Assembly: GCF_000739635.1 (NCBI RefSeq)
Contig: NZ_BATQ01000067.1
Location: 1-64,000, forward strand
DNA length: 64,000 bases
From: Verrucomicrobium sp. BvORR034
GTDB lineage: Bacteria; Verrucomicrobiota; Verrucomicrobiia; Verrucomicrobiales; Verrucomicrobiaceae
Direction: 5' to 3'
Part shown: positions 45,540 through 54,310 of the stretch, in pieces
Numbering within the stretch: the stretch's first letter is position 1
Layout of the letters: each line of letters opens with the position of its first letter
Made by a program: the position numbers and the translations under genes
The notes under the pieces: model-generated
The model's database searches: none
What the model was told of the DNA's origin: nothing
The model's input: only the letters and a program-made list of their open reading frames with translations

Positions 45540-48500
45540 TCAACCCTGGGCGCGCTTCCGCCTCAAAACCAAGGCTGCAAACCCCAGGAAGAACAGTATC
45601 ATCCGTGATGGCTCGGGCACGGCGATGGCGATGATGCCTTCGGAGGCGAAGCGTGTGGTGTCCCATTGGTATCCGGATGAGAGGCTGGGCAGTACGAGGT
45701 CGCCCAAGCTGTCGGGGTTGAAGCCATTGAGGGCGATGGAACTGGCGTCAATGATGTCAAAGACTTCTGTGCCAGTGGGGGTGAATGCACCGAGACTGAT
45801 GTTGATCACGGTATTGGCATCCAGGCTCAAAAGTCCGCCCACGCTCAGTTTGTCGAAAACGGTGCTGGAAGCGAGATCGAAGTTGATCGTGCCTGAGACC
45901 GTGAGGTCTGACGCGAAGCTCAAGGTGCCGGTACCGAAGTCTGTGCCCACGGCGGCGGTATCCGCACCCATGATGAGCCTTCCTCCCACGCTGATGACGG
46001 TGCTGCCCGCGATGCGGCCAGTGCCACCCAGGCTGCCACCGCTGGCAACCGTGACAGCGCCCGTGCCCGTGCCGGAGCCGGAGAGGTTGGTCACCAGCAG
46101 GGTGCCTTGGGTGACGGTGGTCGGTCCATCATAGGTGTTGGCATTGCTCAGGGTGAGGATGCCGACGCCGGTTTTATTTAGGCTGTTGGATACCTGCGTG
46201 CGCAGCAGCGTGCCGGAGCCATCGTCCTGGAGTTTGAGGTAATCGCTCGCATTGAAGGAGACGACCGGAGTCCCACTTGCCATCGGATTGTAGCCGAATC
46301 CGAAGGTGGAGGTCCATCCTGACCCCACCACGGGTCCGGCCCCGCCGCCACCATTGCCAAAGCGGATCTCAATCGTGTGCCAACCATCGTTATTGGTCCC
46401 CATGCCGAAATCGGAAGTGATGTTGCCAGCTGGAGCGCCGTTGGCCGTCGTCGAGTTGGTGGTGGTGACGACGTTGTAGGTTGAGTTCGTCAAGACGACT
46501 TTGCCATCGACGATGATCTGTACGGAGTCGTCAATGTTCTCGGCAAAGGCAAACTTCCCATCGGCATCAAAAAACTGACCAGTGTAAACCCATGTCTCCT
46601 GATCGGCCCATTTTCCGGCAGTCGTCTTGTCTGCCGAGTACCCTGCAATGGCTGAGAGCACTTGGGCTCCGCCGGGGTTGGCCGTGGTGGTGTTGAACGA
46701 TGATCCAGCTGTGACGCGCCCCTCCCTCAGGCCTGCCACATACCCCGTCTGGCCTGAGACGACGCCGCTGATGGTGGTGTTGCCTGCTCCCGTGATGGTG
46801 AGGGTGTAGTCGGCCTTCACATTCCCGGCCAATGTAAGCGTCTGGCCGGCAGTGGCAGAATTCACCGTGGCGGCAGAACCGAGTGTCACGGGACCGCTCA
46901 CTGTGTTGTTTCCTCCGGAACTTTTGAGGGCTCCGGCACTCGCGACGCCTGTACCATTGATGATGATCTCCTCAGGTGTGGTGATGTTGTTCTGCAACTC
47001 CAGCGTGGCCCCTGAGACCACGCCTGTGCCTAAGGTGACGCCCGTCGTGCCTGTGCCCAGTGCATTGTTGTGTCGGGCTACCAAGGTGGTGTTCGCGCTC
47101 ACCTGGGTGTAGCCGCGGTAGGTGTTGTTTCCTCCTAGCACCACTGTGCCCGTGCCCGTACTGCTGGTGTACACGGAGGAGTCGCCGTCGAAGTTGTTGT
47201 TGGAGTTGCCACTGATGTTGCCGTTGAACGCTACGATGCTTGTCCCTTCGGCCCGCAGGGCGAGTTGCTGGCTGCTGCCACTGTTGTTGTGGGTAATGTT
47301 CCCGTTAAAGGTCGTGGTGCCAGTGGTCGCCTGCGTGCCCAGCGTGGTGGTGCCACCCGAGGCGTTGATCTGGACGCCCCGACTGATGGTGTAACTGCCG
47401 CTCGTAACCAGGCTTGCGGATGCCACCTGGATGGCAGCAGTGCTGTTGCCCAACTGCCCAGCCCCGCCGCCGCTGGCGATGTCCTGGTCCACCCGGAGCG
47501 TGCCACCCGTGACAATGGTGGTGCCAGTGTAGGTGTTGGCGTTGCCCAGAATCAAGGTGCCAGCGTCAGCCTTCATTAGGTTGCCTGAGCCCGAGATGAC
47601 CATGGTATTTGCCAGGGTGAGGGTGGCACCAGAGTTTACATCCAGTGTTCCGCCACTGCTTCCCAAGGTGATGCCACGATTGGCGTCATCCAAGGTGAAG
47701 CTGGCGCTGGCTTCGAGACCACCCCCGTTCAGAGTCAGTTGGTCCGCTGCGTAGGCTGCCGGATTTGCTCCCAGTCTATCTTCTGCGCCAACGCTTAGCA
47801 GGCCTCCATTGACCGTTGTCTTGCCGCCATAGCTGTTGGCCACCGTGAGGGTGAGCCGCCCGTTGCCGTTCTTGATCAAGTTGCGGGCGGTGCCGTCGTT
47901 GGTGATGGCCCCCAAGCTGACGGTGGTGTTGCCACCGGTTGCCGTTGAGTTCACGATGTTGAATGTAGCGTCAGCCGAGAAGGTGGTTGCGCCAAAGGTC
48001 AGGGTGGTCGCCGCATTGTTCGCCACATTCAACGTCGTGCTGTCGGCATTGACGGTGAGCGTGGCGCTGCCCATGGCGAGCGTGCCCATCCCAAACGTCT
48101 GCGAGCCACTGCCAGCGGTGGCGCGGCCCAGGGTGATTGTTGTCGCGGCGGAGACGGTGGTGTTCCGGTTGAAGGCGAGGCTGGTGTCATTGGCCAGCCA
48201 GAGCGTGCCACCATTGAGATTCACCGTGGCGGCACCGGTCCCCAAGGCATTGACGTTCGCTGTGGCACGCAGTGTTCCCACGTTGGTAGTCATAGTGCCT
48301 GTGAAGGTGTTGTTGCCACTGAGGACCAAAGTGCCCGTGCCGGTCTTCGTCAAAGCGCCCGTGCCACTCACCACGGAGCTGATGGTGCTGGTGCCTGACG
48401 CTACGGAAACCGTGTCTCCGCCCAGATCAAGCGTGCCGCCGGAGAGATTTACGGTGCCTTCTTCAATGGTGATCCCCAAAGGATTGATGGTGCCCGTGAC

Positions 48501-48818
48501 GGTAATGGCCTGGATGCCTGTACCATCCGCGCCAGCGCTGAAGACAGCGATATTGCCATCTGCCCACAGGCCCGGTGCGGCGGCTCCCGTGGCGTCGGTG
48601 TTCCAGTTCGAGGTTGTCGTGTCCCAAGTGCTGCTGCTGGCAGCACCCGTGCCTGCAGTGGTACCGTTGGCATCCCAATACAAAGACTGGGCCTGAACCT
48701 GTGCGGCGGGCGTTAGCGAGAGGCCGACTGTTGCTGCCAGGACGTTCAGGATGAGACTCATCCCACGACGAAGCAGGCGGACATTTCCCGTTGAAGGGGC
48801 CGAAGTATGAAAGCGCAT
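45540..48818 (-). CDS. autotransporter-strand repeat surface protein with PEP-CTERM anchor
   Basis: 1092 aa from ATG 48818. After a signal region (GMSLILNVLAATVGLSLTPA|AQVQAQ) come autotransporter-associated beta-strand repeats: ALTKTGTGTLVLSGNNTFTG, NLIKNGNGRLTLTVANSYGG, LMKADAGTLILGNANTYTG, LNKTGVGILTLSNANTYDG. Around residues 660-880 a PA14-like domain is inserted (GKWADQETWVYTGQFFDADG, FAENIDDSVQIIVDGKVVL, DGWHTIEIRFGNGGGGAG). The C-terminus is a PEP-CTERM tail: AVPEPSRMILFFLGFAALVL then RRKRAQG, for exosortase sorting. It should be a large surface adhesin or matrix protein. Strong codon bias produces many antisense ORFs. Confidence 0.88.
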   Translation of the reverse strand: MRFHTSAPSTGNVRLLRRGMSLILNVLAATVGLSLTPAAQVQAQSLYWDANGTTAGTGAASSSTWDTTTSNWNTDATGAAAPGLWADGNIAVFSAGADGTGIQAITVTGTINPLGITIEEGTVNLSGGTLDLGGDTVSVASGTSTISSVVSGTGALTKTGTGTLVLSGNNTFTGTMTTNVGTLRATANVNALGTGAATVNLNGGTLWLANDTSLAFNRNTTVSAATTITLGRATAGSGSQTFGMGTLAMGSATLTVNADSTTLNVANNAATTLTFGATTFSADATFNIVNSTATGGNTTVSLGAITNDGTARNLIKNGNGRLTLTVANSYGGKTTVNGGLLSVGAEDRLGANPAAYAADQLTLNGGGLEASASFTLDDANRGITLGSSGGTLDVNSGATLTLANTMVISGSGNLMKADAGTLILGNANTYTGTTIVTGGTLRVDQDIASGGGAGQLGNSTAAIQVASASLVTSGSYTISRGVQINASGGTTTLGTQATTGTTTFNGNITHNNSGSSQQLALRAEGTSIVAFNGNISGNSNNNFDGDSSVYTSSTGTGTVVLGGNNTYRGYTQVSANTTLVARHNNALGTGTTGVTLGTGVVSGATLELQNNITTPEEIIINGTGVASAGALKSSGGNNTVSGPVTLGSAATVNSATAGQTLTLAGNVKADYTLTITGAGNTTISGVVSGQTGYVAGLREGRVTAGSSFNTTTANPGGAQVLSAIAGYSADKTTAGKWADQETWVYTGQFFDADGKFAFAENIDDSVQIIVDGKVVLTNSTYNVVTTTNSTTANGAPAGNITSDFGMGTNNDGWHTIEIRFGNGGGGAGPVVGSGWTSTFGFGYNPMASGTPVVSFNASDYLKLQDDGSGTLLRTQVSNSLNKTGVGILTLSNANTYDGPTTVTQGTLLVTNLSGSGTGTGAVTVASGGSLGGTGRIAGSTVISVGGRLIMGADTAAVGTDFGTGTLSFASDLTVSGTINFDLASSTVFDKLSVGGLLSLDANTVINISLGAFTPTGTEVFDIIDASSIALNGFNPDSLGDLVLPSLSSGYQWDTTRFASEGIIAIAVPEPSRMILFFLGFAALVLRRKRAQG

Positions 48819-48916
48819 TGGGGGTTTTGATTTTTCGGGGTGAAATTTATCAAACCCGAGCGGCAAAACCTAGAAGAATTGCACCTTCTAAAGAAGTTGC
48901 TTAGTACATACAAGAA

Positions 48917-52249: not shown

Positions 52250-52945
52250 TTACTTCACCCAGCCGAACATGACAGCGAGGGGGATGGAGCAGTTGCCGAT
52301 GAAGATGAGTCCGGCGTAGGCAAGACCCAGGCCCTTGAATACCGGCCAAGAGCGAGCGGTGGCCAGACCGAGCGTCTGGAACATGCTGGAGACCCCGTGG
52401 CTCAGGTGGGAGCAGAGCAGACCCATCGCAAAGATGTAGAAAATGGAGGCCGGAATCCAGGAAAAGCCGTGAATTACCATGGTGTACACGTCATGCACGG
52501 TCTCGCCATGGAGGTTGGCATGAAGGTCGCCGTAGTTGTTCCCCACATGCAGCGTGAAGTGGAGGATGTGGTAAACGATGAACGCCAGGACGGTGAGCCC
52601 GCTGAAGATCATGTAGCGGGAGGACTTGGAGGCCTGGATGGTGGCCTGGTAACCGTAGCGGTCCGCGCGGGCCACGCGATTCTCACGCGTGAGCTTGATG
52701 GTAAAGATAATATGGATGGCCACTGTGACGAGCAGGCCGATGCGGGCGATCCACAGCAGAGCTCCCATGCTTTGCAGCTTGTGCCCATAGGCATTCAGTG
52801 CGTCCGGCCCCAAGAAGACCAGGAGATTTCCGAGCATGTGGCCCAAAATGAAGATGACCAGAGCTGCCCCGGTGAGGGCTACAAGAAATTTCTTGCCAAT
52901 GGATGAACAAACAAACGCGGAAAGGGACTTAGTCAGGGCGCTCAT
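52250..52945 (-). CDS. sdhC: succinate dehydrogenase cytochrome b subunit (B-type, single membrane subunit)
   Basis: 231 aa from ATG 52945. About five membrane helices; haem-ligand histidine candidates in FILGHMLGNLLVFLG, IVYHILHFTLHVGNN, and FAMGLLCSHLSHGVSSMFQT. The absence of sdhD and the order C-A-B match the B. subtilis/Bacteroidota class with two haems b in one subunit. First gene of the operon. Confidence 0.9.
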   Translation of the reverse strand: MSALTKSLSAFVCSSIGKKFLVALTGAALVIFILGHMLGNLLVFLGPDALNAYGHKLQSMGALLWIARIGLLVTVAIHIIFTIKLTRENRVARADRYGYQATIQASKSSRYMIFSGLTVLAFIVYHILHFTLHVGNNYGDLHANLHGETVHDVYTMVIHGFSWIPASIFYIFAMGLLCSHLSHGVSSMFQTLGLATARSWPVFKGLGLAYAGLIFIGNCSIPLAVMFGWVK

Positions 52946-53068: not shown

Positions 53069-54310
53069 TTAGGTTTGTGGCTCGTTGGCGCATTCGAAAA
53101 ACGGCCAGTTGGCGGTGGGGTGCCCGAGGCTTTCCTGCTCAAAACGGCCTTTTCGGCCAGAGGATCGCAGCGCCGTTAGGCTTTTCCGGACATCCGCGAG
53201 TTGCGGACTCACAAGCAATCGCTCAAGCAGGCGAATCTCTTGAGACGTGAGGCATGGTGAATCTTCGTCTTCGCGAAAATTCATGTGCAAAGGCTGAATG
53301 GGCCGGGCGATGCGTGTTCTCAGGTCCCTGAGGATGTCAAATCCAGCAGGGTCGGTATCGCCAAAGTGCCAGAATTCCAATTCAGCAGGCAGCCGTTCAT
53401 AGAGGCGCAACACACCAGAACCCGGGTAGCTGGTGTGAATCAGCAGCACGCCGCTCTGAAGGCGGGCGAGGCCGTGGAAGGTGGTTTCATTCTCCACACT
53501 GAGGCAGCGGGTGGCGCTGGTCGCCAACGTGATGGCGTTTTCTATGTCTGCAGCAGAGATGCGGGAAGCTTCCTTGAGCGGTCCCAGATCCACGACGCCC
53601 GCTGTCGTATGAATCTGAAGGGGGCCGTGAAGCAGTACGGATCGCGGCGTCTCCATCAGGCCCATGTCGGCCAGACTCGAGCATTGTCCTCCGGTGATCT
53701 GGTCCAAGGCCTGGCCAAGGCGGGGGGCCATTCTTTCTAGTTGCTTGGAATCACCACAGAGCGTGCAGCTCGCCACTCGCACAAGCGTCGGGGTTTGCCA
53801 GTTCAGCACGCCCTTCAAGATCATCAGCAATTCCGCAGCGGTATCCTGGTTGTTGAACGCGAAGGGCGCGATCGACTGTCCCTGGTGAGCGGCGCTTGCC
53901 AGCCTGGTGCACCATCGGTCCCATCTTTCTTGCCATAGCGCTGGCAGGTCGGACACGTCTTTAGCCGCATGGTGAAAAAAGGCAGCCCATTGGGCACGAA
54001 GAGCCGTGGGGGTTGGCTGCCCGAGCACTTCAAAGAGCCAGCTTTCGCCTCCGTCAGCCAGCAGACGAACCTGCCAGATGATGGAGGGATCACGTGGATG
54101 GCGCTCCAGAACCAGTTTGCTGCCTGGCAGTCCAGAAGCGGCGTTCAGTTCCTTTTCTGCCTGGACTCGGGAATCTCCGTCGGTGCAGCCAGCCAGTTTT
54201 AACAGATCGGGGTAGTCCACCAAAAAATCCCGTACTCCGGTCCCTGTGCGCCCCTGCTTGGAGGCGTGATAGCGCCTCGCAAGAGCTTCAAGAACGGGAA
54301 AGGAGGGCAT
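53069..54310 (-). CDS. JetD-like (DUF2220) TOPRIM-domain protein, without JetABC
   Basis: 413 aa from ATG 54310; the frame extends further upstream without natural sequence. The N-terminal region (about 1-120) is a probable winged-helix part (VLEALARRYHASKQGRTGTG). The C-terminal part matches the TOPRIM/DUF2220 module of Wadjet JetD: RCLSVENETTFHGLARLQSG (Glu at about residue 273), VLLIHTSYPGSGVLRLYERL, and LEFWHFGDTDPAGFDILRDL (DxD at about 318-320). In Wadjet systems JetD is the nuclease that cleaves plasmid DNA trapped by the JetABC SMC complex. No jetA, jetB or jetC lies nearby. It may be a housekeeping TOPRIM protein, a remnant, or a stand-alone defence nuclease. Confidence 0.72.
   Translation of the reverse strand: MPSFPVLEALARRYHASKQGRTGTGVRDFLVDYPDLLKLAGCTDGDSRVQAEKELNAASGLPGSKLVLERHPRDPSIIWQVRLLADGGESWLFEVLGQPTPTALRAQWAAFFHHAAKDVSDLPALWQERWDRWCTRLASAAHQGQSIAPFAFNNQDTAAELLMILKGVLNWQTPTLVRVASCTLCGDSKQLERMAPRLGQALDQITGGQCSSLADMGLMETPRSVLLHGPLQIHTTAGVVDLGPLKEASRISAADIENAITLATSATRCLSVENETTFHGLARLQSGVLLIHTSYPGSGVLRLYERLPAELEFWHFGDTDPAGFDILRDLRTRIARPIQPLHMNFREDEDSPCLTSQEIRLLERLLVSPQLADVRKSLTALRSSGRKGRFEQESLGHPTANWPFFECANEPQT

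What the first reader, a model, noticed from the sequence alone, without database searches (positions are those of the whole stretch)
53069..54310. JetD-like TOPRIM protein with no JetABC neighbours
The C-terminal part carries the JetD/DUF2220 signature (VENETTF, then HFGDTDPAGFDIL), but the neighbours are sdhCAB and small exported protein genes. Wadjet nucleases normally work with an SMC complex. A lone copy may be a stand-alone plasmid defence nuclease, a housekeeping topoisomerase-like enzyme, or a remnant.
Basis: partly seen in the sequence, partly recalled or inferred. Interest (0 to 1): 0.65.

Follow-up and report, generated by a model that had tools for sequence, protein, structure and literature searches.

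The report
Plasmid-defence nuclease parted from its operon
The lone JetD gene is the cutting subunit of a type I Wadjet anti-plasmid system whose other three genes sit elsewhere in the same genome (2.5 million bases away in a related finished genome), so a system that looks incomplete at either place is complete when the whole genome is read.

Summary
Window 53069-54310, minus strand, is an intact 413-aa JetD: Pfam JetD_C, PADLOC JetD1, and a confident model matching solved JetD and MksG along the chain. "No JetABC neighbours" is true locally. But the same genome holds intact type I jetABC on another contig, with no jetD after jetC. A finished congeneric genome has jetABC near 2.79 Mb and jetD near 5.30 Mb; a third species is also split. 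Related genera have ordinary jetABCD operons, and JetC and JetD trees agree at clade level, so this is the operon's own jetD moved beside sdhCAB. JetD is under purifying selection and keeps its active-site residues; JetC keeps its ATPase motifs. In 280 order genomes at least 90% complete, 88 have type I JetA: 54 linked to JetD, 8 split (six apparent lineages), 6 contig-edge, 20 without JetD_C. Split JetDs keep the active site; the one full-length JetD without JetA in its genome lost both metal ligands. Most likely a working Wadjet encoded in two places; cooperation is inferred, not shown. I found no published split Wadjet in the papers searched.

The parts
53069..54310 (-). jetD: 413-aa type I Wadjet nuclease subunit; N-terminal winged-helix/CAP part plus C-terminal Toprim domain
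53477..53497 (-). codons for residues 272-278, VENETTF, with Toprim metal-ligand glutamate E273
   Evidence: translation; E in 48 of 49 aligned JetDs; role by analogy with MksG E236 (PMC10123090)
53330..53368 (-). codons for residues 315-327, HFGDTDPAGFDIL, with D318 and D320
   Evidence: translation; D318 in 48/49 and D320 in 49/49; role by analogy with MksG D279 (PMC10123090)
53126..53149 (-). codons for residues 388-395, GRFEQESL, with the paired glutamates E391 and E393
   Evidence: 48/49 each; glutamates proposed as alternative nucleophiles in JetD (PMC10123090)
54311..54441 (.). intergenic stretch between jetD and the divergent exported-protein ORF; start region conserved in three species; no 9-mer or longer shared with the jetA upstream region
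   Evidence: promoter scan found no minus-strand site
52250..52945 (-). sdhC, the gene after jetD on the same strand (123-bp gap); context, not part of Wadjet
   Evidence: jetD lies beside sdhC only in this genus among relatives examined

Best explanation
The gene is the nuclease subunit of a type I Wadjet system encoded in two unlinked places. JetABC (SMC motor JetC, kleisin JetA, KITE JetB) is made from a three-gene cluster on contig C65. JetD is made from the window, beside sdhCAB. The proteins would meet in trans and work as in known Wadjet: JetABC extrudes small circular DNA, and when extrusion is complete the JetD dimer is activated and cuts it. SHOWN: the gene is JetD; intact type I jetABC is in the same genome without an adjacent jetD; the split is conserved in three species of the genus; JetC and JetD share a history at clade level; the active-site and ATPase motifs are intact; jetD is under purifying selection. 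INFERRED: that this JetD binds and serves this JetABC, that the system restricts plasmids, and that jetD left an ancestral jetABCD operon in an ancestor of the genus.
For: JetD identity: Pfam, PADLOC, and an AF2 model (pLDDT 93.6) matching P. aeruginosa JetD 7TIL (Z 14.6, model residues 4-409) and C. glutamicum MksG 8B7F (Z 14.2, residues 4-410). Partner genes: PADLOC JetA1 3e-35, JetB1 2e-9, JetC1 6e-160; Pfam JetA 3e-46, DUF4194 2.5e-11, SbcC_Walker_B 6e-17, all on C65 in order jetA-jetB-jetC, then an FAD oxidoreductase gene instead of jetD. JetC keeps Walker A (GLTGSGKS), signature (SGGEN) and Walker B (PIDEAF). Split conserved: G003, one contig of 8.22 Mb, jetABC at 2.78-2.79 Mb and jetD at 5.29-5.30 Mb; G002 (Verrucomicrobium sp. 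BvORR106) C111 and C48. Ancestral linkage: jetABCD operons in G008, G029, G062, G142, G116, G004, G033. Shared history: in both trees the genus falls in one clade with G008, the G029 group and the G142 group, apart from the G004 group. Selection: jetD dN/dS 0.15-0.17, jetABC 0.025-0.077. Split JetDs with JetABC elsewhere in the genome keep all five catalytic residues; L138, with no JetA found, has VQK and GNSD.
Against: No physical, expression or phenotype data. No shared sequence of 9 or more bases between the jetA and jetD upstream regions, so no sign of co-regulation. Within the genus JetD changes 5 to 17 times faster than the JetC C-terminus; but pairs from linked systems also show ratios of 3 to 35 at short distances, so this is not special to the split. 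Other genomes of the order keep JetABC with no JetD found, so JetABC can persist without it. The decayed-orphan contrast rests on one full-length case in a MAG of unknown completeness.
Confidence: 0.77

Rival explanations
1. JetABC has become a MksBEF-like chromosome condensin, and the displaced JetD is a stand-alone nuclease with another role, such as repair or stress, perhaps expressed with sdh.
For: JetABC evolves as slowly as sdhA. Several relatives keep JetABC with no JetD found, including single-contig G072 and G200. A review holds that P. [quoted passage not shown]
Against: JetABC-retaining genomes with split jetD all keep the JetD active site, while the one full-length JetD without JetA has lost it. 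Of the JetD loci fetched, the two checked genomes where no JetA was found hold one JetD with an altered active site and one fragment. JetD alone cuts only at artificially high concentration and without circular-DNA specificity (PMC10586767).
Confidence: 0.13
2. Decaying remnant left after the operon broke up.
For: Fast protein divergence within the genus (78-85% identity) and no operon neighbours.
Against: Open frame of 413 codons in three species, dN/dS about 0.16, active site intact, and speed typical of linked JetDs too.
Confidence: 0.05
3. The JetD serves the genome's other Wadjet, the type II system on contig C160.
For: That system is present (JetB2, JetC2, JetD2).
Against: It has its own JetD2 after jetC2 (PADLOC 2.6e-111), while the window protein matches JetD1 (2.8e-32) and JetD2 only at 0.0017.
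Confidence: 0.02
4. Housekeeping topoisomerase of the Topo VI-A/Spo11 kind.
For: Toprim and CAP folds match Topo VI-A 1d3y (Z 18.9).
Against: No column with 50% or more tyrosine in 49 JetD sequences, so no conserved catalytic tyrosine; match to JetD and MksG along the whole chain; the family co-occurs with JetABC.
Confidence: 0.01
5. Assembly artefact: the split is a false join or contig break.
For: The window genome is in 200 contigs.
Against: Both genes lie inside contigs with conserved flanking genes in three species, one of them a single 8.22-Mb contig.
Confidence: 0.02

Closest known systems
Type I Wadjet (JetABCD, also MksBEFG/EptABCD)
   Same: All four subunits match type I profiles; Toprim active site, SMC ATPase motifs and overall JetD fold are as in solved examples.
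   Different: jetD is not in the operon: it lies next to sdhCAB, on another contig from jetABC, about 2.5 Mb away in the finished congeneric genome.
MksBEF condensin without MksG (P. aeruginosa) and jetABC loci lacking jetD (S. maltophilia, PMC11680222)
   Same: A jetABC cluster with no nuclease gene beside it.
   Different: Here the nuclease gene is kept intact elsewhere in the genome. In S. maltophilia such loci were called probably inactive.
Topoisomerase VI A subunit / Spo11
   Same: Toprim domain and CAP-like domain, same overall fold.
   Different: No conserved catalytic tyrosine.
Type II Wadjet of the same genome (contig C160)
   Same: Another Wadjet with its own JetD2.
   Different: Different subunit families, compact, with its nuclease gene in place.

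Membership tests
JetD (type I Wadjet nuclease) | JetD_C / JetD1 profile match | tested here: met
   Pfam 47.1 bits against 22; PADLOC JetD1 2.8e-32
JetD (type I Wadjet nuclease) | Toprim metal-binding acidic residues and paired glutamates | tested here: met
   E273, D318, D320, E391, E393 present
JetD (type I Wadjet nuclease) | N-terminal CAP/winged-helix part plus Toprim, similar to solved JetD/MksG along the chain | tested here: met
   Z 14.6 to 7TIL, 14.2 to 8B7F, model residues 4-410; rmsd is high (12.0 and 7.1), probably because the two domains can be oriented differently
JetD (type I Wadjet nuclease) | JetABC-dependent cutting of circular DNA | not testable with these tools
   needs purified proteins or a plasmid assay
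Type I Wadjet system | JetA, JetB and JetC of type I in the same genome | tested here: met
   contig C65, (JetA is PF18982, not DUF3375)
Type I Wadjet system | SMC ATPase motifs in JetC | tested here: met
   Walker A, signature and Walker B present
Type I Wadjet system | jetABCD in one operon (the usual organisation) | tested here: not met
   jetABC on C65, jetD on C134; same split in G002 and G003. Claimed therefore as a variant in organisation, not as a standard operon.
Type I Wadjet system | restriction of plasmids in the cell | not tested
   experiment proposed
Topoisomerase VI-A/Spo11 | conserved catalytic tyrosine in the CAP domain | tested here: not met
   no column with 50% or more Tyr among 49 JetDs

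The most novel reading that the evidence does not exclude
Unlinking of the nuclease from its motor is a recurrent and selected state, not an accident: jetD has been moved about six times in this order so that motor and nuclease are expressed separately, letting JetABC act on the chromosome all the time as a condensin while JetD is supplied only when needed, a living intermediate between Wadjet and MksBEF.
Probability: 0.2. Interest if true: 0.68.

Novelty: new variant of a known kind. Interest (0 to 1): 0.47.

Why it matters
Wadjet is usually recognised from genes that lie together, so a split system can be scored as incomplete or missed; a published survey called jetABC without adjacent jetD probably inactive (PMC11680222). 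If split systems work, such calls need a whole-genome check. Wadjet is also the likely source of the condensin MksBEF (PMC10586767), and this order shows linked, split and nuclease-less states side by side, so the order of steps in that change can be studied. The genus includes a species with working gene deletion and, so far, no replicative plasmids (V. spinosum, PMC12283558), so the idea can be tested directly.

Tried and rejected
Phmmer of the single protein against PDB gave only chance hits; a family profile reached Topo VI-A, not JetD, by sequence, and fold comparison was needed for JetD itself. NCBIfam had no model that matched. DUF3375 was tried as the JetA marker and is absent from the genome; the type I JetA there is PF18982. 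The idea that fast JetD evolution shows relaxed selection after the split was rejected, because linked JetDs evolve as fast relative to JetC. The idea that jetD beside sdhC is ancient was rejected: other genera have other genes upstream of sdhC. A shared regulatory motif upstream of jetA and jetD was sought and not found. The sdhB row is in the wrong frame and is not used. Apparent splits in G026, G037, G227 and G217 proved to be operons cut by contig ends, or are best read so; G066 and G101 are left unresolved.

Full report
WHAT IS THERE. The window encodes on its minus strand, 53069-54310, a 413-aa protein. Pfam JetD_C matches with E=2.2e-12 and PADLOC JetD1 with 2.8e-32. A model from an alignment of 49 relatives has mean pLDDT 93.6. 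It matches solved P. aeruginosa JetD (7TIL, Z 14.6, model residues 4-409), C. glutamicum MksG (8B7F, Z 14.2) and Topo VI-A (1d3y, Z 18.9). The Toprim acidic residues E273, D318, D320 and the paired glutamates E391, E393 are present and almost invariant among 49 relatives. MksG E236 and D279 are needed for full cutting activity, and two glutamates have been proposed as nucleophiles in JetD (PMC10123090). No column with half or more tyrosine exists, so this is unlikely to be a Topo VI-type enzyme.

THE PARTNERS ARE IN THE SAME GENOME. The genome (8.58 Mb, 200 contigs, 99.96% complete) has one JetD_C match above cut-off, the window gene. Type I jetA, jetB and jetC lie together on contig C65 (L049 8313-9794, 9855-10550, 10586-14044), matching JetA1, JetB1 and JetC1 and Pfam JetA and DUF4194. 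After jetC comes an FAD oxidoreductase gene, with no jetD. JetC has its Walker A, signature and Walker B motifs. A separate and intact-looking type II Wadjet (JetB2, JetC2, JetD2) is on contig C160.

THE SPLIT IS A GENUS TRAIT, NOT AN ASSEMBLY GAP. In G003, one contig of 8,220,857 bases (the size I recall for V. spinosum DSM 4136; not checked), jetABC is at 2.78-2.79 Mb and jetD at 5.29-5.30 Mb. In G002, which the matching contig length and JetA coordinates identify as Verrucomicrobium sp. BvORR106, they are on contigs C111 and C48. Both flanks are conserved in all three species. JetD beside sdhC is seen in this genus only; in the other relatives examined sdhC has other neighbours.

IT IS THE SYSTEM'S OWN JETD. 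Relatives G008, G029, G062, G142, G116, G004 and G033 have ordinary jetA-jetB-jetC-jetD clusters. JetC and JetD trees agree at clade level and put the genus in the same clade with the same relatives. The simplest reading is that jetD left an ancestral operon. I infer this; no breakpoint survives in this genus.

IT IS STILL UNDER SELECTION. Across the genus dN/dS is 0.15-0.17 for jetD and 0.025-0.077 for jetA, jetB and jetC. JetD changes 5 to 17 times faster than the JetC C-terminus, but in pairs from mostly linked systems the ratio is also 3 to 35 at short distances, so the split did not cause it.

HOW COMMON. Among 280 genomes of the order at least 90% complete, 88 have type I JetA above cut-off. 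JetD_C lies within 12 kb in 54; in 14 it is on another contig or far away; in 20 none was found. Of the 14, inspection shows 8 genuine splits: the three genus members, G074, G039, G290 (Akkermansiaceae UBA956, by its matching JetA coordinates), G190 and G268. The other six are contig ends or unresolved. The eight fall into six apparent lineages; the tree covered three of them and required three changes; the rest is inferred from different genera and contexts. G039 is a MAG and its split could still be a misassembly, although homology to the linked copy in G040 stops at the jetC and jetD gene ends. In G268 jetC reaches a contig end, so that case rests on jetD having other genes upstream. A look at 67 JetD loci from named genomes gave 56 operons and few exceptions. 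JetD-less jetABC includes single-contig G072 and G200, and G054 and G058, where yicC follows jetC directly or nearly so while G033 has jetD between them. Absence rests on profile searches and may include missed or unassembled genes.

A NATURAL CONTROL. Every split JetD with JetABC elsewhere in its genome that I checked keeps the five active-site residues. The one full-length JetD from a genome with no JetA found (L138) has VQK and GNSD in place of VEN and GDTD, and another (L175) is a fragment. This fits JetD being kept active because JetABC is there. It is one case, from a MAG of unknown completeness.

MECHANISM. By established knowledge of type I Wadjet, JetABC extrudes a small circle fully and then JetD cuts it; JetD alone lacks this specificity (PMC10586767). 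I propose the same here with subunits made at two loci and meeting in trans. Identity, presence, conservation and motif integrity are shown; binding, cutting and plasmid restriction are not. V. spinosum lacks replicative plasmids in current practice (PMC12283558), which fits active restriction but has many other possible causes.

NOVELTY. Loss of jetD from jetABC is known (PMC10586767; PMC11680222 calls such loci probably inactive). I found no report of a jetD kept at a distance; the library holds only open-licence papers and no preprints, so this is weak evidence of absence. I file it as a new variant in gene organisation of a known kind.

Noticed in passing
G000 contig C160, L059:83-6706: A second, type II Wadjet (JetB2, JetC2, JetD2) in the same genome; JetA2 would lie at or beyond the edge examined.
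   Followed up: partly
L049:6530-7511 (G000 contig C65): A SoFic-like Fic gene just upstream of jetABC looks frameshifted in this genome but is one 335-aa frame in G003 (L050:12639-13646).
   Followed up: no
L069, L113, L111, L108 compared with L063 and L114: In related genera jetD is missing between jetC and the next conserved gene (a 499-aa exported protein gene or yicC) that follows jetD in linked relatives, suggesting clean losses of jetD.
   Followed up: partly
L052, L060, L065 in genus g8: Two divergent type I Wadjet clades (JetC about 28% identical) have genes at the same chromosomal neighbourhood, near an NYN-domain-like gene, as if systems were swapped in place.
   Followed up: no
L072 (G036): jetD of an otherwise linked operon appears broken by a frameshift into two pieces.
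   Followed up: no
G000 contig C82:59676-60371: A second sdhC-like gene, 65% identical to the one in the window.
   Followed up: no
window 45540-48866: A 1108-aa repeat-rich autotransporter-like protein ending in a PEP-CTERM-like segment.
   Followed up: no
L175:9296-10465: A JetD C-terminal fragment in a genome (Verrucomicrobia Tous-C9LFEB) where no JetA was found.
   Followed up: partly
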